Assembly: GCA_945859605.1 (NCBI GenBank)
Contig: OX243811.1
Span: 32,084,713-32,148,712, forward strand
Length of the DNA stretch: 64,000 nucleotides
From: Lumbricus rubellus
Taxonomy: Eukaryota > Annelida > Clitellata > Crassiclitellata > Lumbricidae
Direction: 5' to 3'
Position 1 is the first letter of the stretch; every line of letters begins with the position of its first letter. The position numbers were made by a program, and so were the translations under genes. Shown here in pieces: positions 22,070-50,621 of this stretch. The notes beneath the pieces were generated by a model. That model worked only from the letters and a program-made list of their open reading frames with translations, was not told the origin of the DNA and made no database searches.

Positions 22070-22579
22070 TGTAAGCTAATTTAATCAGTGCACGACGATT
22101 GTCGTACAGCGACGCAGGTAGGCCAACTGCAAATTGGCGCGCGGCGTCTGGACAGGTGGTTGTCTGGACAGCGCGTGATGTCTAGACGAGCGTACGTTGA
22201 GTGTACAAGGAGGGAGTGGAAGTGAAGAAGGAGTGTTGTGTGTTGAGAGCTGTTGAGATAGGCTGTAATAGTTGTTGTTGAGTTGCGATAGAGTAGACTG
22301 ATGAAGGTAGTAGTCGTGTAGTTGTTATGATAACGCAAGTGTAGTCATTGTTGTGTTGTTGCTGATCGTTTTACTTTACATCGGATTTTGGAGTATAATA
22401 AGAAGACTTAAACACGTCGTCGTTGTTGGTTACAAAACAGTGAAAGTCTGTAGATTCTTTACCTAGCCATTTAGCTAATGAAACAGTTATCTAGGGATAG
22501 GCCTATGCTACCACGAACTTATACGAAGAAGCTTCCGAAGAGACTGATAGGAGGAGGTGATCACAAGGAGGTTATCACA
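22070..22579 (+). repeat. 5' LTR, gypsy-like copy 1
   Basis: Starts TGTAAGCTAATTTAATCAG and ends GGAGGTTATCACA. A TATA-like TATAATA lies at about 22394-22400. The following TTTGGTGTCGTTGCGG starts the leader; its TGG is where a tRNA 3' CCA would pair, so it is the likely primer-binding site. Confidence 0.92.
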
Positions 22580-22922
22580 TTTGGTGTCGTTGCGGTGAGA
22601 TAACGATCCAAGTTGCAGGAGAACGATCCTAAGTACGAACGGCGGGTCTACGTGCCAAGTTACGAACGGAGGGATTCTATCCAATCAACAGACGTTGCGG
22701 AGGAACGGACGCTGTGCATTTATCGAGGAGCCGAGCACACGGGAGAAGCAACGATACATCGAGCATCCGTACGTCAGTGAGAAACGACAACACAACGACT
22801 ACAAGGTAGAAAAACTTGCTTGTCTATTGAAGTGTGCATAAAGAATTGAAGTCAGTCAATTGCAAACATTTGAAGAGTAGCCTACTATTTATCGACTAGC
22901 ATCAGTAAAGTAAAGAAGTAAG
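22580..22922 (+). other. Leader and putative primer-binding site, copy 1
   Basis: Untranslated 343 nt between LTR and the ATG at 22923. TGGTGTCGTTGCGG directly after the LTR is the putative primer-binding site; the tRNA is not identified. Confidence 0.6.
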
Positions 22923-25900
22923 ATGGAGAAACTTACAGAGCAAAAGCAAGCGACTATTAAGAAGATGGCTTCCGAAAGAATAATAAAATTATTAATCGAA
23001 GCAGGTTTAGATGCAGAAGAAGTCGGACAGATGTCGAGGGAAAGTTTGATGAGAAATTTAGCCGAGGTTTGGGCTAAGAAAGAAGAAGAAGAAGAAGGTG
23101 CTGTCGGAGGCGATGCGGAGAAGCCAGTTGAGAAGCCACAGCCACCTATGTCTATAGAGGCGTTGCTACAACTCATGATGATGAGTAGACAGGAAGAGAA
23201 AGAACGTCGCCAAGAAGAGAAGGAGAAAGAAGAGCGACGGTGCCAAGAGGAGAAAGAGCGTAAACAAGAAGAAAAAGAGAAAGAAGAGCAGCGCAGACAA
23301 GAGGAGAAAGAGCGTAAACAAGAGGAGAAAGAGCGTAAACAAGAAGAAAAAGAGAAAGAAGAGCAGCGCAGACAAGAGGAGAAAGAGCGTAAACAAGAGG
23401 AGAAAGAGAAAGAGGAGCAACGAGCGGAAAGAGCAGAAAAATTAGAAAGGATAAGACAACAAGAGATAGACATGCAGAAGCAACAGTTCCAGCTTCAGTT
23501 AGAACAAATGAAAATAGATCGTGACGAATCAGAACGACGAAGGATGGAGTTAATGATAGAGTACGAAAAAGCAAGAAAAAGCGATGAAGAAATACGAAAG
23601 CAGCAGATTGAGGACAAAAAGGCTCGCGAGGAAGAAAAAGAAAAGATGCGTTTACAAGAACTGGAGAGAGCAGAAGAAATTCGTCAGGAAGAATTTCAAG
23701 CCGGAAAAGACAATTTGGCAAAAGCAGAAAGAGAAAGAGAAGAGCAGATGCAGTTAGAACAAAAGAAACTTGCTATCAAGGAGGCTCAACTTAAAGAAAT
23801 GGCCATTGAAAAAGAAGAACGCAGAAAGCAGTTAGAACTGTTGCAGCAGAAGATTGAACAAGAAGAACTGCGGAGAATCGAAGATCAAGATCGACTGAAG
23901 AAGAGGGACGAAGATGATCGTAAGAGCCGGGAAGTATCAGAACAGATTAGGCTCAAAGAAAGTGAGACAATGGTGTCCAAGATTAAGAAGATAGGTGACG
24001 CAATGAAGCATGTGTTACCGAAGATGCCGTATGATATGATGGAAGTGCCATTATATTTTGAAACAGTTGAAAATGCATTCAATAGCTTCGCTGTGGAAAA
24101 GCAATATTGGGTGAAATTGTTGTTGCCATTGATGACCCCGAGAGCGCGAACGGTATTGAATCGATTGTCATTTGAGAATTTAGATAAATACGATGCAGTG
24201 AAAGAGCACTTGTTGAAGGAATTCAAATTAACAGCTCGTGAGTACAGGTCAAGGTTTGCAGATGCCAAGAAGACAGCCGAAGAAACGTATACGATGTTCA
24301 CGGCTAGGCTGAAGAACCTGTTGAATTATTATGTCCGAAGTAGACGAGTGGACAAAGACTACGAGAAGCTGTTTGATTTGTTAGTGGCGGATAAGCTGAA
24401 AGAATGTTTACCACCAGGTCCCCTACAGTTTGTCTTAGCAAAAGAGGGCACAGAATGTTTGGAAGCTAGTAATGTTGCAGACCTCGCAGACATACATGTA
24501 AACAATCGAATTGGTGTGATGTTCCAAGACAAACCGAAATTTGAAGCATGGGGAAATAGCTCAAAGCCATTCAAGTGGAACAAGGATAGCAAAGACACCG
24601 GAAGCCAAGCCAAGAGTAATGATGCAAAGAAAGATAATTATTCTGGAAAGCAGTATTGGCAAGATAAGAAAGAGTCAACGTGGGACAGACAAGCCTACAA
24701 TCGAACTCCGCCGCTGGGACGCCCAACAGAAAGTAATGCATCATACACGCCGTACAACAAGTGGGAGAACAATGAGCAAAGAAGTTTTATAAAGAAACGT
24801 TGCCACAACTGTCATTCTGACAAACACCTAATAAAACATTGCCAAGCACCAGGAGCGGCAAATCTGAGGAAGAACTTTAGCAGAAGTGCAGAAAATCTTC
24901 GAGTAAACCAGATACAAGTGATGAATGCACCAGACCAGTTTGAAGAATCGGACGATCGTGAAACAGAAGTGAAGTCGGTAATGAAGTGTACGCCGCAGTT
25001 CACCATACAGAAAGAAGCGATAAAGACTACTTCCATTGCAGAAATTTGTCGAGAAACAAAAAGTAAAGAGGAGTGTCAACGCATAAAGAAGATATCGTTG
25101 CAGCATGTAAATGTGGAGATACGTGGGACTGATGGGCAGCCTGTGCAAGTCGAGGCGTTGGTTGACACGGGGACCGAGATACCAGTAATCAACGAGGAAC
25201 TACTGAAAGGAACGACAGTAGAAGAAATCGGCAGAGTTCATTTGCAATGTGTAGCTGGAGAGCCGATTCCAGCTAAGTTGGTGAAAATCGAAGTGCGGAT
25301 GAGCGGTCGTAACGAAGGAGCAGTTACAGAGGACAGGACAATAAATATCGCGCCATATTTAACTTTAGTGTGTGCCAGCATTCCAGCGGATCTGTGCAAA
25401 GAAAACAGAGAAAAGTTCTTGCTACATCCGGAGATAATTGCAGAATTGAAAGAGATTCCACCAGTGAGTGTATTGCAAGGGGAACTACAAGCGAATGTGA
25501 CTACAAGAGCACAAAGTCGGAGAGCAGAAGTCGAAGGCGGAGAAGATGAAACGATAAACGAAAGTTCGCAAGAAGATGACACGGACAGCGAAGATGAACT
25601 CAGCATTCAAGATGACGAAAGAACAACATCTGAGAACAATGAAACTGAAGAAGAGATGGCTGCATGTGAACGAAATGATAGTGAAGATTCCGGAAGCGAC
25701 GCTGAACTGGAGACAAGTATGAGGGACTTGTTCACAGAGAATTCGAACGATGAAAGACAGCTGGAAGATGCGAAGAAATTCGAGGAGCAGCAGAGAAATG
25801 ACGAGTCACTGAAATCGTGGTGGAGGATCGCTGAAGACAAAGGATCAGAGTTTAGCGTGGTGAATGGATTGATGTATAAGAAACATCAAATGCTGGATCA

Positions 25901-27269
25901 GCTAGTGTACCAGTTGGTGTTACCGAAAGAGAGAAGAATTCAAGTAATGGAATTAGCTCACGAGTCAGTATTTGGCGGACACTTGGGAGAAGAGAAGACA
26001 CGAGAGAGAATCAAGTTGTCCTTTGTCTGGCCAAAGATGCGTCGAGACGTGGTGAAATTTTGTAAGTCCTGTGAGAAGTGTCAGCTGAAGGCACGAAGTT
26101 TGGTGATGGATCGAGTGCCGATTACACCAATTCCAAGGGAAGATGTACCATTCCGACGGATGACTATGGACGTGGTAGGCCCAATAGAACCGAAGTCAGC
26201 AGCTGGGCATAAGTATTGCTTGTGCATAGTGGATTCATGTACAAGATGGCCGACAATCTTTTTGCTGAAGTCATTGACTGCTAAGGCTGTGTGCGAAGCT
26301 TTGATGAAGCTATTCATTGACGTGGGGGTGCCATCTGTGATCACCAGCGACAGAGGCACGAATTTTACAGCCAGTCTTACAAGGGAATTTTTGAAATTGA
26401 TGGGATGCTGTCCACGATTCGATTCACCAGGGCATCCAGAGGCAGCCGGATTAGTCGAGAGATGGAACCAGACGTTCAAGAAGATGGTACATCATGTCAT
26501 TGTGGAAAATCCAAAACAGTGGCATAAAATCATTCCGTTTACTGTATGGGCATTGAGAGAAGTTCCAAACGCAACGACAGGAGTGGCACCATATCTGCTG
26601 GTAGGCCTATATGGAAAAATGCCAAGAGGACCATTAACTATCTTAAAGGAAAGTTGGACCAAAGAAATAAATCTACCGCCAAACATTGGAGTACAACCAG
26701 CAAAGTACCTGAAGAACTTAAGAGCAGACATGGAGAAAGCTTTGATATTTGCTGATAATTGTGCAGAGGAAAAGCAAAAACAATACGCCAGTCAATACAA
26801 CAAGAGGGCCAAGGATAAAGAATTCGAACCAGGAGAAAACGTCATCGTCCTGTATCCAACGTCAACCAATAAATTGATCTCACGATGGCATGGTCCATGT
26901 ACAGTGCTACAAAGAAGATCCAAGTATTCGTATCTGGTGGATATGAATGAAAACGGCCGACGAATCGTCCATGCCAACAAAATGAGGAAGTTCATCGCAA
27001 GAACATTATCGTGTGGTCTCATCGTGGAAGAGGACGACGAATTCGGATCAGTGGTAGAGCTACCATTGAAAGAAGACCATGCAGAGACGACACAGAAATC
27101 GCTGCAATTGGACTATGAACAGATCGGACATCTTACGTGCGAGCAACAGAAACAGCTACTGGATGTACTGAACTGTTATGCAGACAGATTTTCGGACAAA
27201 CCTGGATTATGTACATTGGTAGAACAGGAAGTGGTGCTGAACCCAAAAATCCTAACACTTGTTAACTAA
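22923..27269 (+). CDS. Gag-protease-integrase polyprotein, copy 1 (1448 aa)
   Basis: Start ATG in the context AAGATGG. Residues about 60-355 are a charged coiled coil built from repeated EEKERKQ-type units. A gag capsid-like region follows (about 360-530), then a CCHC zinc knuckle C627-x2-C-x4-H-x4-C640, and an aspartic protease motif DTG at 748-750. A H2C2 integrase zinc finger starts near H1013; the integrase core has D1104, D1143 and E1179 (D-x38-D-x35-E). The C-terminus carries the FSDKPGL segment that normally leads into RT, then stops at NPKILTLVN. RT itself is missing. Relative to copy 2 it has a two-residue insertion near 1227. Confidence 0.92.
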   Translation: MEKLTEQKQATIKKMASERIIKLLIEAGLDAEEVGQMSRESLMRNLAEVWAKKEEEEEGAVGGDAEKPVEKPQPPMSIEALLQLMMMSRQEEKERRQEEKEKEERRCQEEKERKQEEKEKEEQRRQEEKERKQEEKERKQEEKEKEEQRRQEEKERKQEEKEKEEQRAERAEKLERIRQQEIDMQKQQFQLQLEQMKIDRDESERRRMELMIEYEKARKSDEEIRKQQIEDKKAREEEKEKMRLQELERAEEIRQEEFQAGKDNLAKAEREREEQMQLEQKKLAIKEAQLKEMAIEKEERRKQLELLQQKIEQEELRRIEDQDRLKKRDEDDRKSREVSEQIRLKESETMVSKIKKIGDAMKHVLPKMPYDMMEVPLYFETVENAFNSFAVEKQYWVKLLLPLMTPRARTVLNRLSFENLDKYDAVKEHLLKEFKLTAREYRSRFADAKKTAEETYTMFTARLKNLLNYYVRSRRVDKDYEKLFDLLVADKLKECLPPGPLQFVLAKEGTECLEASNVADLADIHVNNRIGVMFQDKPKFEAWGNSSKPFKWNKDSKDTGSQAKSNDAKKDNYSGKQYWQDKKESTWDRQAYNRTPPLGRPTESNASYTPYNKWENNEQRSFIKKRCHNCHSDKHLIKHCQAPGAANLRKNFSRSAENLRVNQIQVMNAPDQFEESDDRETEVKSVMKCTPQFTIQKEAIKTTSIAEICRETKSKEECQRIKKISLQHVNVEIRGTDGQPVQVEALVDTGTEIPVINEELLKGTTVEEIGRVHLQCVAGEPIPAKLVKIEVRMSGRNEGAVTEDRTINIAPYLTLVCASIPADLCKENREKFLLHPEIIAELKEIPPVSVLQGELQANVTTRAQSRRAEVEGGEDETINESSQEDDTDSEDELSIQDDERTTSENNETEEEMAACERNDSEDSGSDAELETSMRDLFTENSNDERQLEDAKKFEEQQRNDESLKSWWRIAEDKGSEFSVVNGLMYKKHQMLDQLVYQLVLPKERRIQVMELAHESVFGGHLGEEKTRERIKLSFVWPKMRRDVVKFCKSCEKCQLKARSLVMDRVPITPIPREDVPFRRMTMDVVGPIEPKSAAGHKYCLCIVDSCTRWPTIFLLKSLTAKAVCEALMKLFIDVGVPSVITSDRGTNFTASLTREFLKLMGCCPRFDSPGHPEAAGLVERWNQTFKKMVHHVIVENPKQWHKIIPFTVWALREVPNATTGVAPYLLVGLYGKMPRGPLTILKESWTKEINLPPNIGVQPAKYLKNLRADMEKALIFADNCAEEKQKQYASQYNKRAKDKEFEPGENVIVLYPTSTNKLISRWHGPCTVLQRRSKYSYLVDMNENGRRIVHANKMRKFIARTLSCGLIVEEDDEFGSVVELPLKEDHAETTQKSLQLDYEQIGHLTCEQQKQLLDVLNCYADRFSDKPGLCTLVEQEVVLNPKILTLVN

Positions 27270-27273
27270 TTGA

Positions 27274-27831
27274 TTGATATTTTTTGGTTTCTACAGACAA
27301 TTTATTTGTAATTTTGCTGAAATTGCTAAACCATTAACGGATTTAACTAGCAAGCAGACACCTGAGAACATTGTTTGGACTGAGGACCACCAGAAGTCTT
27401 TTGATTCTCTTAAAGAAATTGTTTTATCAAATGTGATTTTATACATGTTCGAGGTTGGCAAACCATTTAATTTGTACTGTGATAGCAGTGATTTTGCTGT
27501 GGGGGCTGTGCTGTCACAAGTGGACGATGAGGGGATAGAACGTCCCGTTTCATTTATCAGTCAGAAGCTGACAGATACCCAGAGGAGATGGGCGACGATT
27601 GAGAAGGAAGCCTATGCAATCATATGGGCTTTAAACAAATTGAAAGAAATTATTATTGGTTCCAAGATTAATGTGTTCACTGACCATAATCCTTTAGTTT
27701 ATTTGACTGAGTCAATGTCGAAGTCTGCTAAGTTAGTCCGATGGTCTTTATCATTGCAAAATTTTGACATTCTGTTGAACTATAAGAAGGGAAAGCTGAA
27801 TGTAGTAGCGGACTGCTTATCGAGATTGTAG
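27274..27831 (+). CDS. RT thumb remnant plus RNase H, copy 1 (about 185 aa)
   Basis: Begins in the conserved G-F-Y-R-x-F-I segment found after the RT palm of gypsy elements, then PLTDLTSK and the RNase H domain with LYCDSSDFAVGAVLSQ, EKEAYAIIWALNK and FTDHNPLVYL, giving the usual D, E and D catalytic residues. It ends NVVADCLSRL, a typical gypsy RNase H end. No ATG supports independent translation (the first codon of the open frame is TTG), and a stop separates it from the upstream ORF. It may be expressed by readthrough or reinitiation, or may be non-functional. Confidence 0.88.
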   Translation: MIFFGFYRQFICNFAEIAKPLTDLTSKQTPENIVWTEDHQKSFDSLKEIVLSNVILYMFEVGKPFNLYCDSSDFAVGAVLSQVDDEGIERPVSFISQKLTDTQRRWATIEKEAYAIIWALNKLKEIIIGSKINVFTDHNPLVYLTESMSKSAKLVRWSLSLQNFDILLNYKKGKLNVVADCLSRL

Positions 27832-27928
27832 TATAAGATATTTTGTGATTGCATTTAGTATAGGAATTGTTTGTATTTAGTTTAAGCATTATACGTTCGC
27901 TAATTTTTAAGATTAATTAGCTCTCTTC

Positions 27929-27945
27929 AAAAGAAAGGAAGGAGG
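27929..27945 (+). other. Polypurine tract, copy 1
   Basis: AAAAGAAAGGAAGGAGG three bases before the 3' LTR; the plus-strand priming site. The same tract is mirrored at 44763-44779 in copy 2. Confidence 0.88.
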
Positions 27946-27948
27946 TAA

Positions 27949-28458
27949 TGTAAGCTAATTTAATCAGTGCACGACGATTGTCGTACAGCGACGCAGGTAG
28001 GCCAACTGCAAATTGGCGCGCGGCGTCTGGACAGGTGGTTGTCTGGACAGCGCGTGATGTTTAGACGAGCGTACGTTGAGTGTACAAGGAGGGAGTGGAA
28101 GTGAAGAAGGAGTGTTGTGTGTTGAGAGCTGTTGAGATAGGCTGTAATAGTTGTTGTTGAGTTGCGATAGAGTAGACTGATGAAGGTAGTAGTCGTGTAG
28201 TTGTTATGATAACGCAAGTGTAGTCATTGTTGTGTTGTTGCTGATCGTTTTACTTTACATCGGATTTTGGAGTATAATAAGAAGACTTAAACACGTCGTC
28301 GTTGTTGGTTACAAAACAGTGAAAGTCTGTAGATTCTTTACCTAGCCATTTAGCTAATGAAACAGTTATCTAGGGATAGGCCTATGCTACCACGAACTTA
28401 TACGAAGAAGCTTCCGAAGAGACTGATAGGAGGAGGTGATCACAAGGAGGTTATCACA
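27949..28458 (+). repeat. 3' LTR, gypsy-like copy 1
   Basis: Same 510-bp length as the 5' LTR. One visible substitution relative to it. Confidence 0.92.
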
Positions 28459-28487
28459 TCATTATTATTATTAGCCTATTATTAGCC

Positions 28488-28526
<39 letters not shown>

Positions 28527-28806
28527 GAGGTGTACGAGACAATTTGTCCACTCCTGGGGAACATAACACACGACAATTATTATTATTATTAATTATTATT
28601 ATTATTATTAAACGAGTATAATATTATATTATTATTATTAAACGAATATAATATTAATAATAGTAATTATTATTATTATTATTACTGCTTCTCTTGTTTA
28701 TTGTACTTTCTGTTACTGATGCTGTTTTTTTATGATATTAAAAGGTATATATTATAGTAATAATAATAATAATAATAATAATATAATAAAAATTATAATA
28801 TTAGAA
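28459..28806. repeat. (ATT/TAA)n tract with a 49-bp unique island
   Basis: Right continuation of the split ATT array. A non-repetitive island (28526-28574, CGAGGTGTACGAGACAATTT to ACACACGACA) lies inside it, and TAA repeats resume up to the non-LTR element. Confidence 0.85.
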
Positions 28807-28808
28807 AA

Positions 28809-31421
28809 GTGCTCAAACATATACCAAGAGGAGCACGATTCGCATGCGCAAAAGCTCTCACTTCTATACTGAGGAACATCATGGAGAAACCGAAGAACGT
28901 CGAAGCATGGCATCAGCTGTTGTGGTTTGCGCCTAACATTCTAGCGCAACCAGCTCGGGCGGGCAAGAGACGTAACCTGACCAACGTCATAAAGAAAAGA
29001 CTGGACAGACAAGAGCATCTGGATAATGAGATGGAACACGAAGGCGGACAGGGTAGACGCAGAGAAAGGGTTAATGACAGAGACTTGCTTCTTGCAGCTG
29101 TCAACGCCAAACTAGAGGAGGGGAACATAAGAGCAGCATCCCGCATCTTATGCAATAGAGACCATCCGGTCAGAGCGACGGCGGAAAACTGGGCAGCCAT
29201 GCAGGAAAAACATCCGACAGATGAGCTGCCATCCAGGATGGCGGATCTTCCGGATCCGGATAACAATTCCGCATACCAAATGCTGGAGACGGAACTTGTT
29301 GGATTGGTGAGATCGTTCCCCGTTGGATCGGCCGGCGGACCGGACGGATTCCGACCTCAGCTCCTCGTGGATCTTATCAACAACAAAGAGTCTTCGCAGG
29401 AACTCATCCAGGCATTAACGGGATTTGTTAACACCATGCTGAGGGGCGAATGTCCAGAGGAGATCCGTAGATTGATGTTTGGAGGTACACTGATTGCGCT
29501 ATCCAAAAGCAATGGTGGCCTCAGACCAATAGTGGTCGGTTATGTCTGGAGGAGACTAACAGCAAAGGCGGCAAATAAATATGCGGTTGATAAACTGGCA
29601 TCCTTCTTCGCCCCTCTCCAGGTCGGCATAGCTACCCCTGGTGGGTGCGAGACGGCGGTTCATGCTGCCAGAGCATTTGTGACAAACATGCCCCAGGGAC
29701 AGGTCTTCGTCAAGCTAGACTTCAGCAACGCTTTTAATACACTGAGACGAGACGTGATGCTGCGGGCAGTTTATGAGACCATACCTGACCTTTATCCGTT
29801 TATACATCAGTCATATGCAGCGGAGTCAATGCTTCAATTCGGGGAGTTCGTGGTCAGATCACAGATGGGACCACAGCAAGGGGACCCTTTGGGTCCTCTG
29901 CTTTTCTGTCTGCCACTGCAGCCTGCCTTGCGGTCACTGACATCCGACTTTCGAGTCGGGTACCTGGATGACCTATCATTAGGCGGAAGAACGGAGGACG
30001 TGGACCACGACATGAACATCATACTAGGCTTGGAGTCGACTCTAGGCCTATCCCTGAATAGACAGAAGTGCGAAATCTTGGGTGGTGAAAATATAGCAGA
30101 GACGACATTCGAGGACTTCAAGCGAGTTACCATGGACTCGATTACTCTGCTAGGAGCACCACTCTGCAAAGGACCGGCACTAGATGAAGCATTGGAGGAA
30201 CATTCAAAGAAACTGGAGCAGGCAATGGTGGACTTGAGGAGGTTGCCCACGCAGGGAGCTCTGCTGCTTATAAGATCTTGCTTCGGGGCGGCGAGGGTAA
30301 CCTTCCTGCTCAGAACCGCACAATGCTGGGAACACCCGTTGCTGAGCGAAATGGATCAACAGATGAGAATTGGATTGGAAGCAATCGTTAACATCAGACT
30401 GAGCGACATCCAATGGATACAGGCGACATTACCGATAAGAGACGGTGGATTGGGAATTAGGAGGCTTCAGATGCTGGCATCTTCCGCATATCTTGCATCA
30501 GCTGCATCAGCCAGAAATCTTCAATCCGCTATTCTTCACTCGGATGTTTGGCAAGACATCTTCAGGGATGCAATTCTTTCTGCTCGCGAGGCCACGCTCC
30601 CAAACGGTGCGTTAGAGGACATCACTGCACAGAGGGTTTGGGACAGACCGCTTATTGAAAAAGATCTAGCTGAGGTGTGGCGCTCGGCTACAGATCCGAT
30701 TTCCAGGGCCAGATTGGGGGCAGTGACTGCCGATCATGCTGGTGACTGGATGGCTGTCTTCCCAATCGCCTCTTGCGGACTGTGCCTCAGTGATGAGGCT
30801 GTCCGAGTTGCGATAGGCCTACGCCTAGGTCTGGATCTGTGCGAGCCACACACGTGTCAATGCGGCGAGACAACAGATATGAGAGGTTATCATGGTCTGG
30901 CCTGTAAGCTGTCTGGAGGGAGAAGTGGCAGACACTTCGCAATGAATGACACCATCTGGAGGGCCCTCCAGCGAGCTGAAGTTCCGAGCACCAAAGAACC
31001 AGCAGGCCTGCTTCGAAGCGACGGAAAAAGACCAGATGGAGCGACATTAATACCGTGGTCAAGAGGAAAATATATGACTTGGGATGCCACCAGCGTACAC
31101 ACGTGCGCAACGTCATATATACACCTCACATCCTTAAAACCTGGAGCAGCAGCAGAGATGGCAGCATCGAAGAAGACTACAAAGTATGCAGAAACCCCCA
31201 CCACACATGATTTTATTCCAGTGGCACTGGAGACTCTAGGCCCCATCAACGCTCAGGGTCGGGAGTTCTTGTCAGAACTTGGTCGGCGTCTAACCATGGT
31301 TTCTGGGGATCCGCAGGAGACGGCACGTTTGTTTCAGCGCCTTTCCATTTGCACGCAGAAGTTCAATGCCGTTGCATTTCGAGGCACTTTTGCACAATTG
31401 ACCGACGAGGATGACCGTTAA
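28809..31421 (+). CDS. Non-LTR reverse transcriptase with RLE domain, 5' partial (870 codons open)
   Basis: The open frame starts with GTG right at the repeat edge; the first ATG is at 28881, and the true N-terminus is probably lost. RT motifs: AGGPDGFRPQ, GLRPIVVGYVWRRL, the motif-A D304 in FVKLDFSNAFN, QQGDPLGPLLF and YLDD at 385-388. A thumb follows. The C-terminus has a C683-x-C685-x9-H695-x3-C699 finger and R741-P742-D743-x15-D759 with WD, the layout of the R2-type restriction-like endonuclease. It would nick target DNA and prime reverse transcription there. No internal stop is seen, so the truncated copy is young. Clade assignment within RLE elements is uncertain. Confidence 0.85.
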   Translation: MLKHIPRGARFACAKALTSILRNIMEKPKNVEAWHQLLWFAPNILAQPARAGKRRNLTNVIKKRLDRQEHLDNEMEHEGGQGRRRERVNDRDLLLAAVNAKLEEGNIRAASRILCNRDHPVRATAENWAAMQEKHPTDELPSRMADLPDPDNNSAYQMLETELVGLVRSFPVGSAGGPDGFRPQLLVDLINNKESSQELIQALTGFVNTMLRGECPEEIRRLMFGGTLIALSKSNGGLRPIVVGYVWRRLTAKAANKYAVDKLASFFAPLQVGIATPGGCETAVHAARAFVTNMPQGQVFVKLDFSNAFNTLRRDVMLRAVYETIPDLYPFIHQSYAAESMLQFGEFVVRSQMGPQQGDPLGPLLFCLPLQPALRSLTSDFRVGYLDDLSLGGRTEDVDHDMNIILGLESTLGLSLNRQKCEILGGENIAETTFEDFKRVTMDSITLLGAPLCKGPALDEALEEHSKKLEQAMVDLRRLPTQGALLLIRSCFGAARVTFLLRTAQCWEHPLLSEMDQQMRIGLEAIVNIRLSDIQWIQATLPIRDGGLGIRRLQMLASSAYLASAASARNLQSAILHSDVWQDIFRDAILSAREATLPNGALEDITAQRVWDRPLIEKDLAEVWRSATDPISRARLGAVTADHAGDWMAVFPIASCGLCLSDEAVRVAIGLRLGLDLCEPHTCQCGETTDMRGYHGLACKLSGGRSGRHFAMNDTIWRALQRAEVPSTKEPAGLLRSDGKRPDGATLIPWSRGKYMTWDATSVHTCATSYIHLTSLKPGAAAEMAASKKTTKYAETPTTHDFIPVALETLGPINAQGREFLSELGRRLTMVSGDPQETARLFQRLSICTQKFNAVAFRGTFAQLTDEDDR

Positions 31422-31457
31422 CTCCAGAACAACAATGTTTTTATTATTGATTTTAAA

Positions 31458-31484: not shown

Positions 31485-31530
<46 letters not shown>

Positions 31531-41380: not shown

Positions 41381-41784
41381 ACAGTGTTTGAGTTCCATCT
41401 ACAGTGTCTGAGTTCCATGTACACTGTGTACAGTGTCTGAGTTCCATCTAAAGTGTCTGAGTTCCATCTACATGTACACGAACAGTGTCTGAGTTCCATC
41501 TACAGTGTCTGAGTTCCATCTATATACAGTGTCTGAGTTCCATCTACAGTGTCTGAGTTCCATCTATATACAGTATCTGAGTTCCATCTACAGTGTCTGA
41601 GTTCCATTTACAGTATACGAATTCCATCTACAGTGTCTGAGTTCCATCTATATACAGTGTCTGAGTTCCATTTACAGTATATGAGTTCCATCTACAGTGT
41701 CTGAGTTCCATTTACAGTATATGAGTTCCATCTACAGTGTCTGAGTTCCATCTACAGTGTCTGAATTCCATCTACAGTGTCTTG
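41381..41784. repeat. 20-bp minisatellite (CAGTGTCTGAGTTCCATCTA)n
   Basis: About 19 units with TATA insertions (CTATATACAGT) and CAGTATATGAGTTCC variants. Confidence 0.95.
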
Positions 41785-42608: not shown

Positions 42609-43041
42609 GGATTAATCCATCGCTGAGGAGGGGTCAGCTACTCGGATCCTTTGTCTCCATGTTGTTCTGTCTCCAGCATCTTCCTTTGTCGGATCAAGTA
42701 GTTCCATGTCCTGCTGAATTATGTCACTCCATCTCTTCTTCTGCCGCCCACGGCTGCGGCGTCCTTGTACTTCTGCACGCATGATTCTTTTGATGCTGCC
42801 GCTCTCATCCGATCGCTCCACATGACCCTACCACCGCAATCTGGCCTCTCGAATTTTATCAGTTATACAATATACAGGCTACTCCAACTGCTTTTCGTAT
42901 GTTCTCGTATCTTCTCTTGTCTTTCAGAGAGGTCCCAAGTATCCATAGTAGCATCCTCATTTCTGTCCTCTCCAGCAGCTCCTCATCTCTTCTCCTCAGC
43001 GTCCAGGCCTCTGCTCCATAGATCATAACCGGTCTTATCAT
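42609..43041 (-). pseudogene. LINE C-terminal fragment, frameshifted
   Basis: On the minus strand 43041-42859 encodes YGAEAWTLRRRDEELLERTE and MRMLLWILGTSLKDKRR, and 42821-42612 encodes RRSRGRQKKRWSDIIQQDME then DRTTWRQRIRVADPS. Together these are the post-RT C-terminal region of a LINE protein. Two frames and an in-frame stop between the pieces show it is dead. RT catalytic motifs lie outside the fragment. Confidence 0.78.
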
Positions 43042-44248
43042 TTCTGTCCTCTCCAGCAGCTACTTTCCTTTAAGATGGATCGTGATTTTTCGGTCACATA
43101 GTACGCATGTCAAATCTCTCCATTTCTGCCAAGCTGCTTTTATTCTATTCTTCACATCCTGCTCACATCAACAATTTTTTAGTATACAGTTTTTTTAGAT
43201 TGCATGTTGATAGGTACACAATTTATAAACTACTGCAAATCGGAAATATCAATCATTATTTATGCAGTATGGCAACCTGTCATCTAGCATATAATACATA
43301 ATATAGCATATGTCCTTGTAGACCTATTGATTAAAGTGGTAACAATTTCTAGTTGAGTTTTGTTTTTTAGACTTCGCTGTTAAAGTGATTGCAATGTTCT
43401 GTCACGCTTTCTAACAGTCAAGTCGCCACGAGCAGAGAATACAATTATTATGCAATGTACAATGTACGTGTATGTTGTATTAATTATTGTTGTGCTATCA
43501 TTCCCGATCGCCGGACTCGGAACATTAAGAGACGATCAACAGTTGATAAGTTTTTAGGAGCTACTACAGATTCTTCTAAAACTCGTGATATTCTCAACTC
43601 CTTTGGCCCTATACACGCGCAGTAGTCCAGCGAAGGCTTTACCGCTTTGGCTAGATCTATTATAGCTCTCGGAAGCGAAGGCCAGTCTCACTTTTGCTGC
43701 AGTTGAATCTGTCCGATACAGTTACTCGCAATCCCTCTGTTAATCCCTCTATCTGTCTCTGTCTTTATTTGTCTGTGTATCTCTGGTCAGTTGGTCTATT
43801 GGTCAGTTGGCTTGTACTTCAGACTATACATGGTGCCATCGTGGTCTTGAATTCGTACGTCAGTAGGCTATGTATGTCCGTCTGTGTAGTCATGAGTGCA
43901 TGCCTTCTTCAATTGCCCGTTTCACTGAGTAGGAGTCATGATCAGGCACCACAGAAATCAGCCTCTACTTTAATGATAAACAACTCAACACCGACAAATC
44001 TGAACTTTGGCCGTTCCCCTAACTACTTCATACAGTCATACAGTGTGCTAAACTTTCACCCTGCTTCCTCCACTTCTTTCTGTCTCTGTCTTTCTGTCTG
44101 TCTGTCTGTCTGTCTGTCTCTGTCTTTGTCTCTCTCTCTCCCCCTCCTTGCCTTCCCCCTCTCTCAATTATATACTGTTCAGAATCTTGGGAGACATCCT
44201 TGGCTCAACACTTTCGGATAGCTCCCATTTCTGTTGTATATATAGGCT
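43042..44248. other. Intergenic, CTGT repeats
   Basis: A partial duplicate of the LINE edge (TTTCTGTCCTCTCCAGCAGC) at 43041-43060, and a (CTGT)n run at about 44086-44120. Nothing else supported. Confidence 0.45.
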
Positions 44249-44759
44249 TGTGATAAACTCCTTCGTTATCACCTCCTCCTATCAGTCTCTTCGGAAGCTT
44301 CTTCGTATAAGTTCGTGGTAGCATAGGCCTATCCCTAGATAACTGTTTCATTAGCTAAATGGCTAGGTAAAGAATCTACAGACTTTCACTGTTTTGTAAC
44401 CAACAACGACGACGTGTTTAAGTCTTCTTATTATACTCCAAAATCCGATGTAAAGTAAAACGATCAGCAACAACACAACAATGACTACACTTGCGTTATC
44501 ATAACAACTACACGACTACTACCTTCATCAGTCTACTCTATCGCAACTCAACAACAACTATTACAGCCTATCTCAACAGCTCTCAACACACAACACTCCT
44601 TCTTCACTTCCACTCCCTCCTTGTACACTCAACGTACGCTCGTCTAAACATCACGCGCTGTCCAGACAATCACCTGTCCAGACGCCGCGCGCCAATTTGC
44701 AGTTGGCCTACCTGCGTCGCTGTACGACAATCGTCGTGCACTGATTAAATTAGCTTACA
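44249..44759 (-). repeat. 3' LTR, gypsy-like copy 2
   Basis: Begins TGTGATAAACTCC on the + strand and ends TTAGCTTACA; adjacent polypurine tract complement at 44763-44779. Confidence 0.92.
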
Positions 44760-44876
44760 TTACCTCCTTCCTTTCTTTTGAAGAGAGCTAATTAATCTTA
44801 AAAATTAGCGAACGTATAATGCTTAAACTAAATACAAACAATTCCTATACTAAATGCAATCACAAAATATCTTATA

Positions 44877-45434
44877 CTACAATCTCGATAAGCAGTCCGC
44901 TACTACATTCAGCTTTCCCTTCTTATAGTTCAACAGAATGTCAAAATTTTGCAATGATAAAGACCATCGGACTAACTTAGCAGACTTCGACATTGACTCA
45001 GTCAAATAAACTAAAGGATGATGGTCAGTGAACACATTAATCTTGGAACCAATAATAATTTCTTTCAATTTGTTTAAAGCCCATATGATTGCATAGGCTT
45101 CCTTCTCAATCGTCGCCCATCTCCTCTGGGTATCTGTCAGCTTCTGACTGATAAATGAAACGGTACGTTCTATCCCCTCATCGTCCACTTGTGACAACAC
45201 AGCCCCCACAGCAAAATCACTGCTATCACAGTACAAATTAAATGGTTTGCCAACCTCGAACATGTATAAAATCACATTTGATAAAACAATTTCTTTAAGA
45301 GAATCAAAAGACTTCTGGTGGTCCTCAGTCCAAACAATGTTCTCAGGTGTCTGCTTGCTAGTTAAATCTGTTAATGGTTTAGCAATTTCAGCAAAATTAC
45401 AAATAAATTGTCTGTAAAAACCAAAAAATATCAA
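44877..45434 (-). CDS. RT thumb remnant plus RNase H, copy 2
   Basis: Near-identical to 27274-27831: GFYRQFI, LYCDSSDFAVGAV, EKEAYAIIWA, FTDHHPLVYL, ending ADCLSRL. Two visible amino-acid changes relative to copy 1 (T for P after IER, H for N after TDH). RNase H catalytic residues are kept; RT palm is missing. Confidence 0.88.
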   Translation of the reverse strand: MIFFGFYRQFICNFAEIAKPLTDLTSKQTPENIVWTEDHQKSFDSLKEIVLSNVILYMFEVGKPFNLYCDSSDFAVGAVLSQVDDEGIERTVSFISQKLTDTQRRWATIEKEAYAIIWALNKLKEIIIGSKINVFTDHHPLVYLTESMSKSAKLVRWSLSLQNFDILLNYKKGKLNVVADCLSRL

Positions 45435-45438
45435 TCAA

Positions 45439-48400
45439 TTAGTTAGCAAGTGTTAGGATTTTTGGGTTCAGCACCACTTCCTGTTCTACCAATGTACATA
45501 ATCCAGGTTTGTCCGAAAATCTGTCTGCATAACGGTTCAGTACATCCAGTAGCTGTTTCTGTTGCTCGCTCGTAAGATGTCCGATCTGTTCATAGTCCAA
45601 TTGCAGCGATTTCTGTGTCGTCTCTGCATGGTCTTCTTTCAATGGTAGCTCTACCACTGATCCGAATTCGTCGTCCTCTTCCACGATGAGACCACACGAT
45701 AATGTTCTTGCGATGAACTTCCTCATTTTGTTGGCATGGACGATTCGTCGGCCGTTTTCATTCATGTCCACCAGATACGAATACTTGGATCTTCTTTGTA
45801 GCACTGTACATGGACCATGCCATCGTGAGATCAATTTATTGGTTGACGTTGGATACAGGACGATGACGTTTTCTCCTGGTTCGAATTCTTTATCCTTGGC
45901 CCTCTTGTTGTATTGACTGGCGTATTGTTTTTGCTTTTCCTCTGCACAATTCTCAGCAAAGATCAAAGCTTTCTCCATGTCTGCTCTTAAGTTCTTCAGG
46001 TACTTTGCTGGTTGTACTCCAATGTTTGGCGGTAGATTTATTTCTTTGGTCCAGCTTTCCTTTAAGATAGTTAATGGTCCTCTTGGCATTTTTCCATACA
46101 CCAGCAGATATGGTGCCACTCCTGTCGTTGCGTTAGGAACTTCTCTCAATGCCCATACGGTAAACGGAATGATTTTATGCCACTGTCTTGGATTTTCCAC
46201 CATGACATGATGAACCATCTTCTTGAACGTCTGATTCCATCTCTCAACTAATCCTGCGGCCTCTGGATGCCCCGGTGAATCGAATCGTGGACAGCATCCC
46301 ATCAATTTCAAAAATTCTCTTGTGAGACTGGCTGTAAAATTTGTGCCTCTGTCGCTGGTGATCACAGATGGCACCCCCACGTCAATGAATAGCTTCATCA
46401 AAGCTTCGCACACAGCCTTAGCAGTCAATGACTTCAGCAAAAAGATTGTCGGCCATCTTGTACATGAATCCACTATGCACAAGCAATACTTATGCCCTGC
46501 TGCTGACTTCGGTTCTATTGGGCCTACCACGTCCATAGTCATCCGTCGGAATGGAACATCTTCCCTTGGAATTGGTGTAATCGGCACTCGATCCATCACC
46601 AAACTTCGTGCCTTCAGCTGACACTTCTCACAGGACTTACAAAATTTCACCACGTCTCGACGCATCTTTGGCCAGACAAAGGACAACTTGATTCTCTCTC
46701 GTGTCTTCTCTTCTCCCAAGTGTCCGCCAAATACTGACTCGTGAGCTAATTCCATTACTTGAATTCTTCTCTCTTTCGGTAACACCAACTGGTACACTAG
46801 CTGATCCAGCATTTGATGCTTCTTATACATCAATCCATTCACCACGCTAAACTCTGATCCTTTGTCTTCAGCGATCCTCCACCACGATTTCAGTGACTCG
46901 TCATTTCTCTGCTGCTCCTCGAATTTCTTCGCATCTTCCAGCTGTCTTTCATCGTTCGAATTCTCTGTGAACAAGTCCCTCATACTTGTCTCCAGTTCAG
47001 CGTCGCTTCCGGAATCTTCACTATCATTTCGTTCACATGCAGCCATCTCTTCTTCAGTTTCATTGTTCTCAGATGTTGTTCTTTCGTCATCTTGAATGCT
47101 GAGTTCATCTTCGCTGTCCATGTCATCTTCTTGCGAACTTTCGTTTATCGTTTCATCTTCTCCGCCTTCGACTTCTGCTCTCCGACTTTGTGCTCTTGTA
47201 GTCACATTCGCTTGTAGTTCCCCTTGCAATACACTCACTGGTGGAATCTCTTTCAATTCTGCAATTATCTCCGGATGTAGCAAGAACTTTTCTCTGTTTT
47301 CTTTGCACAGATCCGCTGGAATGCTGGCACACACTAAAGTTAAATATGGCGCGATATTTATTGTCCTGTCCTCTGTAGCTGCTCCTTCGTTACGACTGCT
47401 CATCCGCACTTCGATTTTCACCAACTTAGCTGGAATCGGCTCTCCAGCTACACATTGCAAATGAACTCTGCCGATTTCTTCTACTGTCGTTCCTTTCAGT
47501 AGTTCCTCGTTGATTACTGGTATCTCGGTCCCCGAGTCAATCAACGCCTCGACTTGCACAGGCTGCCCATCAGTCCCACGTATCTCCACATTTACATGCT
47601 GCAACGATATCTTCTTTATGCGTTGACACTCCTCTTTACTTTTTGTTTCTCGACAAATTTCTGCAATGGAAGTAGTTTTTATCGCTTCTTTCTGTATGGT
47701 GAACTGCGGCGTACACTTCATTACCGACTTCACTTCTGTTTCACGATCGTCCGATTCTTCAAACTGGTCTGGTGCATTCATCACTTGTATCTGGTTTACT
47801 CGAAGATTTTCTGCACTTCTGCTAAAGTTCTTCCTCAGATTTGCCGCTCCTGGTGCTTGGCAATGTTTTATTAGGTGTTTTTCAGAATGACAGTTGTGGC
47901 AACGTTTCGTTATAAAACTTCTTTGCTCATTGTTCTCCCACTTGTTGTACGGCGTGTATGATGCATTACTTTCTGTTGGGCGTCCCAGCGGCGGAGTTCG
48001 ATTGTAGGCTTGTCTGTCCCACGTTGACTCTTTCTTATCTTGCCAATACTGCTTTCCAGAATAATTATCTTTCTTTGCATCATTACTCTTGGCTTGGCTT
48101 CCGGTGTCTTTGCTATCCTTGTTCCACTTGAATGGCTTTGAGCTATTTCCCCATGCTTCGTATTTCGGTTTGTCTTGGAACATCACACCAATCCGATTGT
48201 TTACATGTATGTCTGCGAGGTCTGCAACATTACTAGCTTCCAAGCATTCTGTGCCCTCTTTTGCTAAGACAAACTGCAGTGGACCTGGTGGTAAACATTC
48301 TTTCAGCTTATCCTCCACTAACAAATCAAACAGCTTCTCGTAGTCTTTGTCCACTCGTCTACTTCGGACATAATAATTCAACAGGTTCTTCAGCCTAGCC

Positions 48401-49767
48401 GTGAACATCGTATACGTTTCTTCGGCTGTCTTCTTGGCATCTGCAAACCTTGACCTGTACTCACGAGCTGTTAACTTGAATTCCTTCAACAAATGCTCTT
48501 TCACTGCATCGTATTTATCTAAATTCTCAAATGACAATCGATTCAATACCGTTCGCGCTCTCGGGGTCATCAATGGCAACAACAATTTCACCCAGTACTG
48601 CTTTTCCACAGCAAAACTATTGAATGCATTTTCAACTGTTTCAAAATATAATGGCACTTCCATCATATCATACGGCATCTTCGGTAACACATGTTTCATT
48701 GCATCACCTATCTTCTTAATCTTGGACACCATTGTCTCACTTTCTCTGAGTCTAATCTGTTCTGACACTTCTCGGCTCTTACGATCATCTTCGTCTCTCT
48801 TCTTCAGTCGATCTTGATCTTCGGTTCTCCGCAGTTCTTCCTGTTCTATCTTCTGTTGTAATAGTTCTAACTGCTTTCTGCGTTCTTCCTTTTCAATAGC
48901 CATTTCTTTAAGTTGAGCCTCCTTGATAGCAAGTTTCTTTTGTTCTAATTGCATCTGTTCTTCTCTTTCTCTTTCTGCTTTTTCCAAATTGTCTTTTTCA
49001 GCTTGCAATTCTTCCTGACGAATTTCTTCTGCTCTCTCCAGTTCTTGTAAACGCATCTTCTCCTTTTCTTCCTCACGAGCCTTTTTGTCTTCGATCTGCT
49101 GTTTTCGTATTTCTTCATCGCTTTTTCTTGCTTTTTCGTATTCTATCATTAACTCCATTCTTCGTCGTTCTGCTTCGTCACGATCTATTTTCATTTGTTC
49201 TAACTGAAGCTGGAACTGTTGCTTCTGCATATCTATCTCTTGTTGTCTTATCCTTTCTAATTTTTCTGCTCTTTCCGCTCGTTGCTCCTCTTTCTCTTTC
49301 TCCTCTTGTTTACGCTCTTTCTCCTCTTGTCTGCGCTGCTCTTCTTTCTCTTTCTCCTCTTGTTTACGCTCGTTCTCCTCTTGTCTGCGCTGCTCTTCTT
49401 TCTCTTTCTCCTCTTGTTTACGCTCGTTCTCCTCTTGCCTGCGCCGCTCTTCTTTCTCCTTTTCCTCGTGTCTACGTTGTTCTTCCTTCTCTGCTCGTTG
49501 CTCCTCTCTCATCATCATGAATTGCAGCAACGCCTCCATAGACATCGGTGCCTGTGGCTTCTCAATTGGCTTTCCTTCAGCACCACCAACCGCACCTTCT
49601 TCTTCCGCGTCTTTCGCCCAAACCTCCGCCAAAGATCTCATCAAATGTTCCCTCGACATCTGTCCGACTTCTTCTGCGTCAAGGCCTGCTTCGATTAATA
49701 ATTTCACTATTCTTTCGGAAGCCATCTTCTTAATAGCTGCTTGCTTTTGCTCTGTAAGTTTCTCCAT
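45439..49767 (-). CDS. Gag-protease-integrase polyprotein, copy 2 (1442 aa)
   Basis: Same domain order as copy 1, shifted by four residues: zinc knuckle about 623-636, protease motif DSG (DTG in copy 1) about 744, integrase D1100, D1139 and E1175. The N-terminal coiled coil has a different number and mix of EENERKQ/EEKERKQ units. It lacks the two extra residues that copy 1 has near 1227. It ends NPKILTLAN at the same point before the missing RT. Selection appears to have kept both frames open over more than 4.3 kb. Confidence 0.92.
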   Translation of the reverse strand: MEKLTEQKQAAIKKMASERIVKLLIEAGLDAEEVGQMSREHLMRSLAEVWAKDAEEEGAVGGAEGKPIEKPQAPMSMEALLQFMMMREEQRAEKEEQRRHEEKEKEERRRQEENERKQEEKEKEEQRRQEENERKQEEKEKEEQRRQEEKERKQEEKEKEEQRAERAEKLERIRQQEIDMQKQQFQLQLEQMKIDRDEAERRRMELMIEYEKARKSDEEIRKQQIEDKKAREEEKEKMRLQELERAEEIRQEELQAEKDNLEKAEREREEQMQLEQKKLAIKEAQLKEMAIEKEERRKQLELLQQKIEQEELRRTEDQDRLKKRDEDDRKSREVSEQIRLRESETMVSKIKKIGDAMKHVLPKMPYDMMEVPLYFETVENAFNSFAVEKQYWVKLLLPLMTPRARTVLNRLSFENLDKYDAVKEHLLKEFKLTAREYRSRFADAKKTAEETYTMFTARLKNLLNYYVRSRRVDKDYEKLFDLLVEDKLKECLPPGPLQFVLAKEGTECLEASNVADLADIHVNNRIGVMFQDKPKYEAWGNSSKPFKWNKDSKDTGSQAKSNDAKKDNYSGKQYWQDKKESTWDRQAYNRTPPLGRPTESNASYTPYNKWENNEQRSFITKRCHNCHSEKHLIKHCQAPGAANLRKNFSRSAENLRVNQIQVMNAPDQFEESDDRETEVKSVMKCTPQFTIQKEAIKTTSIAEICRETKSKEECQRIKKISLQHVNVEIRGTDGQPVQVEALIDSGTEIPVINEELLKGTTVEEIGRVHLQCVAGEPIPAKLVKIEVRMSSRNEGAATEDRTINIAPYLTLVCASIPADLCKENREKFLLHPEIIAELKEIPPVSVLQGELQANVTTRAQSRRAEVEGGEDETINESSQEDDMDSEDELSIQDDERTTSENNETEEEMAACERNDSEDSGSDAELETSMRDLFTENSNDERQLEDAKKFEEQQRNDESLKSWWRIAEDKGSEFSVVNGLMYKKHQMLDQLVYQLVLPKERRIQVMELAHESVFGGHLGEEKTRERIKLSFVWPKMRRDVVKFCKSCEKCQLKARSLVMDRVPITPIPREDVPFRRMTMDVVGPIEPKSAAGHKYCLCIVDSCTRWPTIFLLKSLTAKAVCEALMKLFIDVGVPSVITSDRGTNFTASLTREFLKLMGCCPRFDSPGHPEAAGLVERWNQTFKKMVHHVMVENPRQWHKIIPFTVWALREVPNATTGVAPYLLVYGKMPRGPLTILKESWTKEINLPPNIGVQPAKYLKNLRADMEKALIFAENCAEEKQKQYASQYNKRAKDKEFEPGENVIVLYPTSTNKLISRWHGPCTVLQRRSKYSYLVDMNENGRRIVHANKMRKFIARTLSCGLIVEEDDEFGSVVELPLKEDHAETTQKSLQLDYEQIGHLTSEQQKQLLDVLNRYADRFSDKPGLCTLVEQEVVLNPKILTLAN

Positions 49768-50110
49768 CTTACTTCTTTACTTTACTGATGCTAGTCGATA
49801 AATAGTAGGCTACTCTTCAAATGTTTGCAATTGACTGACTTCAATTCTTTAAGCAAACTTCAATAGACAAGCAAGTTTTTCTACCTTGTAGTCGTTGTGT
49901 TGTCGTTTCTCACTGACGTACGGATGCTCGATGTATCGTTGCTTCTCCCGTGTGCTCGGCTCCTCGATGAATTCACAGCGTCCGTTCCTCCACAACGTCT
50001 GTTGATTGGATAGAATCCCTCCGTTCGTAACTTGGCACGTAGACCCGCCGTTCGTAACTAGGATCGTTCTCCTGCAACTTGGATCGTTATCTCACCGCAA
50101 CGACACCAAA
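49768..50110 (-). other. Leader and putative primer-binding site, copy 2
   Basis: Complement of the copy 1 leader; CGCAACGACACCA abuts the 5' LTR at 50110. Confidence 0.6.
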
Positions 50111-50621
50111 TGTGATAAACTCCTTCGTTATCACCTCCTCCTATCAGTCTCTTCGGAAGCTTCTTCGTATAAGTTCGTGGTAGCATAGGCCTATCCCTAG
50201 ATAACTGTTTCATTAGCTAAATGGCTAGGTAAAGAATCTACAGACTTTCACTGTTTTGTAACCAACAACGACGACGTGTTTAAGTCTTCTTATTATACTC
50301 CAAAATCCGATGTAAAGTAAAACGATCAGCAACAACACAACAATGACTACACTTGCGTTATCATAACAACTACACGACTACTACCTTCATCAGTCTACTC
50401 TATCGCAACTCAACAACAACTATTACAGCCTATCTCAACAGCTCTCAACACACAACACTCCTTCTTCACTTCCACTCCCTCCTTGTACACTCAACGTACG
50501 CTCGTCTAAACATCACGCGCTGTCCAGACAATCACCTGTCCAGACGCCGCGCGCCAATTTGCAGTTGGCCTACCTGCGTCGCTGTACGACAATCGTCGTG
50601 CACTGATTAAATTAGCTTACA
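50111..50621 (-). repeat. 5' LTR, gypsy-like copy 2
   Basis: Same 511-bp sequence as the other LTR as far as I can compare. Confidence 0.92.

What the first reader, a model, noticed from the sequence alone, without database searches (positions are those of the whole stretch)
22070..50621. A gypsy-type retroelement that lost its reverse transcriptase core and still moved, twice
Copies at 22070-28458 (+) and 44249-50621 (-) both run gag, protease, integrase, then straight to the GFYRQF segment and RNase H. The RT fingers and palm with the YxDD box are missing, with the same junction (NPKILTL(V/A)N stop, then IFFGFYRQ) in each. Both have near-identical LTR pairs and perfect 5-bp TSDs (TCATT, AGGCT), so each is a bona fide recent insertion of an already RT-less element. 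The more-than-4.3-kb gag-PR-IN frame is still open in both. This suggests a lineage that keeps its own Gag, protease, integrase and perhaps RNase H but borrows RT. Integrase before RNase H also marks it as Gmr1-like.
Basis: partly seen in the sequence, partly recalled or inferred. Interest (0 to 1): 0.88.

Follow-up and report, generated by a model that had tools for sequence, protein, structure and literature searches.

The report
RT-less retroelements riding full-length kin
Some 295 places in this genome carry a jumping gene that lost the enzyme needed to copy it, and copies examined closely had nevertheless jumped recently, most likely by sharing particles with intact sister copies, with which they also swap pieces.

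Summary
Both copies lack the reverse transcriptase (RT) core, share one junction, and have 5-bp target duplications and LTR pairs differing at 1/510 and 0/511 sites. It is not two copies: the junction filler occurs at 295 places in this 787 Mb genome, reversed control 0. An RT-bearing partner exists: an RT 5'-end pattern occurs at 615 places, control 0; 88 of 143 scored RT loci have one open frame of at least 1,780 residues, in Gmr1 order (IN, RT, RNase H) in the two scanned. Three RT-bearing copies have LTRs 99.4-100% identical to copy A's. The RT-less form is not a separate lineage: three leader haplotypes and 20 of 32 informative integrase sites are shared by both classes, so it is a deletion allele in a recombining, probably co-packaged pool. 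Integrase can be lost too: in 7 of 18 sampled RT-less and 2 of 16 sampled RT-bearing places; eight of eight distinct deletions found without frame selection join in phase. Best reading: semi-autonomous derivatives mobilised in trans. Precedents exist in wheat and mammals; RT-only loss beside in-frame integrase losses is the unusual part.

The parts
22065..22069 (.). TSD TCATT, left of copy A
22070..22579 (+). 5' LTR of copy A (510 bp)
22582..22599 (+). presumed primer binding site of copy A (starts TGG just after the LTR; variant 1)
22923..27269 (+). gag - protease-like - integrase - first part of RT, one open frame from ATG to TAA, copy A
25923..26090 (+). integrase zinc-binding domain (PF17921), copy A
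   Evidence: residues 1004-1059
26148..26438 (+). integrase core (PF00665), copy A
   Evidence: residues 1079-1175
27241..27278 (+). 38-bp filler that stands where RT-bearing copies have 718 bp of RT; part of it is an inverted copy of the RT sequence next to the 3' breakpoint
27279..27831 (+). end of RT (GFYRQF..) and RNase H, open but behind stops in all three frames, copy A
27929..27945 (+). presumed polypurine tract of copy A, identical in the RT-bearing copies examined
27949..28458 (+). 3' LTR of copy A
28459..28463 (.). TSD TCATT, right of copy A
44244..44248 (.). TSD AGGCT, left of copy B
44249..44759 (-). 3' LTR of copy B (511 bp)
44877..45434 (-). end of RT and RNase H, copy B
45430..45467 (-). 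38-bp filler junction, copy B
45439..49767 (-). gag - protease-like - integrase - first part of RT, one open frame, copy B
50111..50621 (-). 5' LTR of copy B (511 bp)
50622..50626 (.). TSD AGGCT, right of copy B

Best explanation
The two copies belong to a young, high-copy Ty3/gypsy family with Gmr1 order (gag-PR-IN-RT-RNase H in one frame of roughly 1,830 residues). One rearrangement put 38 bp, including an inverted copy of adjacent RT sequence, in place of 718 bp of RT (shown). The result can still encode Gag-PR-IN and stops just after it (shown at sequence level). It has the same LTR, leader types and polypurine tract as RT-bearing sisters (shown for the copies compared). Its RNA is packaged with RT-bearing RNA in shared particles, copied by their RT and RNase H, and inserted by integrase from either source (inferred). 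Template switching in such mixed particles moves the deletion between leaders and LTR subfamilies (inferred from shared haplotypes). Separate in-frame deletions of integrase circulate in the same pool, so the pol enzymes behave as shared goods (inferred).
For: 295 junction places, reversed control 0; 615 RT 5'-end places, control 0. 88 of 143 scored RT loci have an open frame of at least 1,780 aa. Perfect TSDs in 5 of 6 RT-less and 3 of 3 RT-bearing copies whose two ends were compared; LTR pairs differ at 0-2 (RT-less) and 0-1 (RT-bearing) sites. RT-bearing L002, L006, L007 have LTRs 99.4-100% identical to copy A's and an identical 117-bp stretch before the 3' LTR. All three leader haplotypes (PBS 1, PBS 2, 62-bp deletion) occur in both classes among 9 copies. 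20 of 32 informative integrase sites vary in both classes; 192 of 496 site pairs fail the four-gamete test (16 RT-less, 13 RT-bearing). Integrase dN/dS 0.12 in 16 RT-less and 0.10 in 13 RT-bearing copies; changes seen only in two or more RT-less copies are 2 N: 9 S against 3.05:1 expected. Ten sampled filler places show about four LTR types.
Against: No expression, particle or transposition data. Low dN/dS may reflect recombination with unsampled RT-bearing copies rather than selection on RT-less ones. PBS 2 and the leader deletion are assumed to have single origins. RT from another element family is not excluded. In the random sample of ten filler places no TSD could be confirmed: 8 had no 5' LTR in the stretch read, and in 2 the LTR ends were not resolved. 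Of the 40 integrase-region hits closest to copy A, 11 are RT-less, 28 RT-bearing, 1 undetermined, so the RT-less form is the minority there.
Confidence: 0.86

Rival explanations
1. An RT-less lineage that has evolved on its own for a long time, keeping Gag, PR and IN and borrowing RT from an unrelated element.
For: Copies A and B differ by 3% with dN/dS about 0.15; 295 places share one filler whose sub-variants recur in the 100 places listed, so RT-less elements served as templates over more than one round.
Against: RT-less copies are scattered among RT-bearing ones in the integrase tree and share leaders, PBS, PPT and LTRs with them. A nearly identical RT source is present.
Confidence: 0.07
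2. The RT-less copies arose by duplication of genomic DNA or by an assembly collapse at the junction, not by retrotransposition.
For: Only 25 of the 295 junction places were read into the surrounding sequence, and both ends were compared with a clear TSD in only 5 of them.
Against: Those five have different TSDs and near-identical LTR pairs; the junction recurs at 295 places; no N in the window.
Confidence: 0.01
3. A multipartite retrotransposon: IN-bearing RT-less copies and RT-bearing IN-less copies complement each other, and selection keeps the reading frame of each for the shared particle.
For: Eight of eight distinct internal deletions found without selection on frame join in phase, (1/3)^8 = 1.5e-4 if independent. 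RT-bearing IN-deleted copies exist (L012, L019, L131, L133; also L092, L094, L096, picked by open-frame length). Integrase looks constrained in RT-less copies.
Against: Whole, open RT-bearing copies are common (88 of 143), so complementation between defectives is not required. Two pairs of the eight deletions share their right edge (L073 and L076; L075 and L078), so they may not be independent; six of six would give 1.4e-3. The frame is broken elsewhere in some of these copies: longest open stretch 679 residues in L074 and 438 in L075, and L133 is broken upstream of its junction. Phase could be kept simply because out-of-phase deletions in RT-bearing copies would make no RT. Copy numbers of the IN deletions could not be obtained.
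Confidence: 0.14

Closest known systems
RLG_Sabrina_SA (wheat 'semi-autonomous' Gypsy; PMC9744471, passages seen)
   Same: High-copy LTR element that encodes Gag-protease, lacks RT, and is thought to be mobilised by an autonomous partner.
   Different: The passages say the whole population lacks RT and integrase and has hardly any homology to its partner; here RT is missing inside an otherwise near-identical family and integrase is often kept.
RLG_Quinta / RLG_Cereba (einkorn centromeres; PMC11302176, passages seen)
   Same: Gag-encoding non-autonomous derivative held to be mobilised by its autonomous parent, sharing LTR ends and PBS.
   Different: [quoted passage not shown] here young and still recombining with the parent.
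CfERV-Fc1(a) of canids (PMC6407205, passages seen)
   Same: Shared inherited defects among recent proviruses read as spread by complementation and co-packaging.
   Different: Retrovirus; shared stops, frameshifts and an env deletion, not a loss of RT with IN kept.
Mouse ETn/MusD (PMC12283350, passages seen) and IAP I-delta-1 (recalled)
   Same: Non-autonomous LTR elements mobilised by the enzymes of full-length relatives.
   Different: Other extent of loss (recalled); vertebrate ERVs.
Gmr1 elements (PMC8220671, PMC6238403, passages seen)
   Same: Ty3/gypsy with integrase upstream of RT.
   Different: No RT-less form was mentioned in the passages read.

Membership tests
Gmr1-like Ty3/gypsy | integrase lies upstream of RT-RNase H | tested here: met
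   Pfam order in RT-bearing L025 and L013: zinc 68-123, rve 143-239, RVT_1 553-710, RNase H 804-906
Gmr1-like Ty3/gypsy | RT/IN phylogeny groups with reference Gmr1 elements | not tested
   no named Gmr1 reference sequence in hand; five of the six homologues scanned have IN before RT, P0068 has RT first
LTR retrotransposon | LTR pair, TSD, PBS, polypurine tract | tested here: met
   (PBS and PPT by position and sequence only)
Autonomous LTR retrotransposon | own RT with YxDD | tested here: not met
   no RVT_1 in either ORF of copies A and B; no YxDD in their longest frame
Non-autonomous (semi-autonomous) LTR element mobilised in trans | co-existing partner with RT and matching LTR, PBS and PPT, inserted in the same period | tested here: met
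   L002, L006, L007; LTR pairs 0-1 differences, RT-less 0-2; of these three only L006 is open through the stretches read
Non-autonomous (semi-autonomous) LTR element mobilised in trans | demonstrated complementation | not testable with these tools
   needs particle or cDNA data

The most novel reading that the evidence does not exclude
A retrotransposon turning multipartite: in one recombining pool, copies with integrase but no RT, copies with RT but no integrase, and copies with neither share particles, and selection keeps each remaining domain in frame, like a segmented or multicomponent virus in the germ line.
Probability: 0.15. Interest if true: 0.78.

Novelty: new variant of a known kind. 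Interest (0 to 1): 0.52.

Why it matters
It is a young case in which the birth and spread of a semi-autonomous element can be watched in one genome: the deletion is marked by its filler, the RT-bearing parent is still present at hundreds of places, and shared haplotypes suggest that parasite and parent share particles. Gmr1 order may explain why RT alone can be lost: RT lies behind integrase, so the loss leaves Gag, PR and IN translatable. It makes testable which enzymes of an LTR element are public goods and which must be supplied in cis.

Tried and rejected
Splicing as the origin of the RT deletion: the junction resembles a 3' splice site (TTTCTACAG), but that stretch is coding in RT-bearing copies and part of the filler is an inverted copy of RT sequence, so rejected. 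Independent recurrent deletion: rejected because 295 places share one filler within 3 mismatches. L088 as an ancestral intermediate: it keeps about 325 bp more RT before the same filler, with AAATC microhomology; a recombinant between RT-bearing and RT-less copies is preferred because the common form carries the longer inverted match; not decided. RNase H under selection in RT-less copies: too few differences. Database protein P0001 (no RVT_1, 67% identical) as an RT-less relative elsewhere: its end runs out of register right after the start of RT, so it says nothing either way. Eight best integrase hits as a fair sample: rejected as biased to intact integrase; replaced by random draws, which are draws from the 100 places listed of 295 and of 615, the lists being ordered by mismatches. 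Rows dropped: L005 in the gag-PR-IN comparison (5' rearrangement); L002 (frame broken); L012 and L019 in the integrase alignment (37 of 39 kept by a 90% coverage rule; 31 kept for RNase H, 20 for the LTR, 9 for the upstream part); L088 in the integrase comparison. Unexplained: L077 and L079 have a whole integrase region, but no 5' LTR was found at the expected place. Paper searches: no RT-only case in the listings (searches returned nothing); passages of seven papers were seen, no paper in full. Odds: on checking I lowered the novel case from 0.17 to 0.15, the multipartite rival from 0.15 to 0.14 and the main reading from 0.87 to 0.86, because shared deletion edges, broken frames and the unconfirmed TSDs of the random sample had been left out.
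Full report
What is there. The window lies at C1:32084713-32148712 of an unnamed 787 Mb genome in 368 contigs. Copies A (22070-28458, +) and B (44249-50621, -) are whole LTR elements with 510/511-bp LTRs starting TG and ending CA. Their TSDs are TCATT and AGGCT, their LTR pairs differ at 1 of 510 and 0 of 511 sites, and they are 97.0% identical to each other, most differences lying in the gag coiled-coil. Each has an open gag-PR-IN frame, 1,451 or 1,445 residues from stop to stop. Pfam finds integrase zinc, integrase core and RNase H and no RT. By sequence the nearest solved structures are PFV integrase (E 2.7e-29) and Ty3 Gag-Pol. The protease is read from a D(T/S)G motif only.

Not two places but 295. 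A 28-base pattern from the junction filler occurs at 150 + 145 places with up to 3 mismatches; the reversed control gives 0 and 0; 100 of the 295 places are listed. A 28-base pattern from the start of RT occurs at 296 + 319 places, control 0 and 0, again 100 listed. One copy, L088 on C112, carries both, because it keeps about 325 bp more RT before the same filler. Filler places are thus about a third of the two counts together; the second pattern shows only that the start of RT is there, and both counts include diverged subfamilies. Of the 40 integrase-region hits scored (of 1,238 candidates, so those nearest copy A), 11 are RT-less, 28 RT-bearing and 1 undetermined: 8 read, 5 matched by eye to coordinates, 27 read.

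The junction. In RT-bearing loci 718 bp lie between the two edges; RT-less copies have 38 bp instead. Part of the filler is the reverse complement of the RT sequence beside the 3' edge, 17 exact bases to L013 and L015. The four other RT-less copies read (L003, L004, L005, L008) have one more A there than A and B. The filler puts stops in all three frames, so RNase H is cut off from the gag-PR-IN frame.

The partner. A search with the RT of a related database protein scored 143 loci of 2,523 candidates; 88 have an open frame of at least 1,780 residues, 13 of 1,480-1,779, 11 of 1,390-1,479 and 31 shorter. Pfam order in L025 and L013 is IN, RT, RNase H, the Gmr1 arrangement described in PMC8220671 and PMC6238403 (passages seen). 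RT-bearing L002, L006 and L007 have LTRs 99.4-100% identical to copy A's 5' LTR, their own TSDs, and an identical 117-bp stretch before the 3' LTR. L006 is open in the main stretch and, read separately, through YVDD to RNase H in the next; L002 and L007 have broken frames in the upstream stretch.

Recent movement. Among the RT-less copies first compared at both ends (A, B, L003, L004, L005, L008), 5 of 6 have perfect 5-bp TSDs and LTR pairs with 0-2 differences; L008 lacks the first 115 bp of its 5' LTR, so has no testable TSD, and differs at 2 sites in the shared part. These were the window copies and those nearest copy A. In a random draw of 10 of the other 94 listed filler places, LTR sequence was found at the 3' end in all 10: 5 of copy A's type, 3 of a type about 95% identical, 1 at 94% over most of its length, 1 distant (72% over part). 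LTR sequence was found at the expected 5' place in only 2 of 10, with pair differences of 1 in 442 and 0 in 480, and no TSD was confirmed there because the LTR ends were not resolved. Four of the other eight were read further and all four carry another internal deletion.

One pool, not a lineage. The leader occurs in three forms. PBS 1 with the long leader: RT-less A, B, L008 and RT-bearing L002. PBS 2: RT-less L003 and RT-bearing L006. A 62-bp deletion with the same edges: RT-less L004, L005 and RT-bearing L007. In the integrase region of 16 RT-less and 13 RT-bearing copies, 20 of 32 informative sites vary in both classes, 192 of 496 pairs of sites fail the four-gamete test, and RT-less copies do not form one group on the tree. 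If the filler is a single complex event, as it looks, these patterns require exchange between RT-less and RT-bearing RNAs, most simply by template switching in shared particles. PBS 2 matches the 3' end of a tRNA-Leu by recall; not tested.

Selection. A against B: dN 0.015, dS 0.10. Ten pairs of five RT-less copies over most of gag-PR-IN: dN 0.001-0.009, dS 0.016-0.077, no stops in any. Integrase region: ratio of mean dN to mean dS 0.12 in 16 RT-less and 0.10 in 13 RT-bearing copies; 15 of 16 RT-less copies have no stop there, L089 has one. These 16 were copies with a whole integrase region; 6 of them lie in the window or were found by similarity to copy A, 10 come from the random draws. Changes seen only in two or more RT-less copies are 2 N: 9 S, and RT-less singletons 22: 31 (one a stop), against 3.05: 1 expected without selection (p 1e-4 and 2e-7). 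RT-bearing singletons are 11: 9 (p 0.04; 12 copies). Recombination with unsampled RT-bearing copies could account for part of this.

Integrase can be lost too. Of 18 randomly drawn RT-less places (10 + 8 of 94 listed), 11 have the integrase region whole as far as read (L088 only from position 3840 of copy A's numbering) and 7 have it deleted. Of 16 randomly drawn RT-bearing places (of 83 listed and not yet read), 13 are whole, 2 deleted (L131, L133) and 1 (L128) is joined to unrelated sequence. Distinct deletions found without selection on frame: L073; L076; L074 (same as L019, L081, L085); L075; L078; L012; L131; L133. All eight join in phase, (1/3)^8 = 1.5e-4 if independent. Against this: L073 and L076, and L075 and L078, share a right edge, so six independent events (1.4e-3) is a safer count; L074 and L075 have longest open stretches of only 679 and 438 residues, against 1,165 and 1,198 in L073 and L076; L133 has an in-phase junction but a frame broken upstream; and for L131 the alignment gave a net length not divisible by three, although the translation runs through in one frame. 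Of six RT-bearing loci picked because their open frame was 1,400-1,470 residues, three (L092, L094, the same deletion; L096) have in-phase deletions and three (L091, L093, L095) have none in the stretch read. L012 and L019 are RT-bearing and IN-deleted. One deletion (3715 to 4699 of copy A's numbering) is found in RT-less and RT-bearing copies, again pointing to exchange. How many places carry each deletion is unknown because the searches did not complete.

Mechanism. Shown: structure, insertions, place counts, partner, shared haplotypes, in-phase junctions. Inferred: co-packaging, supply of RT and RNase H in trans, template switching. Whether Gag must be kept is open: gag sequence is present in A, B and the loci that reach into it (L002-L008 in part, L073, L074, L076), only in part in L133, and not found in L075, whose first 2.9 kb do not match copy A. 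A supply of Gag by the derivative is what has been proposed for wheat semi-autonomous elements (PMC9744471, PMC11302176, passages seen).

Against known systems. Trans-mobilised deletion derivatives are known in plants and mammals, so the kind is known. Within the papers held I saw no RT-only loss with integrase kept in a Gmr1-like element (listings); this is a limited search. The remaining surprise is the mix of complementary in-frame losses in one recombining pool.

Noticed in passing
28782-31421 (+): An 879-residue open frame with an RVT_1 match (E 2.7e-16), RT of another kind of retroelement (LINE-like by recall), starting about 320 bases after copy A's 3' end.
   Followed up: partly
57018-60560 (+): A 1,180-residue open frame with weak gag-type aspartic protease and zinc-knuckle matches: probably gag-PR of another LTR element.
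   Followed up: partly
L003/L040 and L006/L047 against A, B, L002: Two different primer binding sites circulate in one element family, in both RT-less and RT-bearing copies; one looks like tRNA-Leu by recall.
   Followed up: partly
L074, L019, L081, L085: The same in-frame integrase deletion (3715 to 4699 of copy A's numbering) in RT-less and RT-bearing copies of different subfamilies.
   Followed up: partly
L096 (C15:24141880-24143550): RT-bearing copy with an in-frame 1,092-bp deletion that removes the protease-like region and the start of integrase.
   Followed up: no
L088 (C112:17698-19377): Filler junction with a different 5' edge, keeping about 325 bp of RT: possible recombinant or intermediate.
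   Followed up: partly
L128 (C14:22733716-22735395): RT-bearing copy whose integrase region starts abruptly at position 3799 of copy A's numbering beside unrelated sequence.
   Followed up: no
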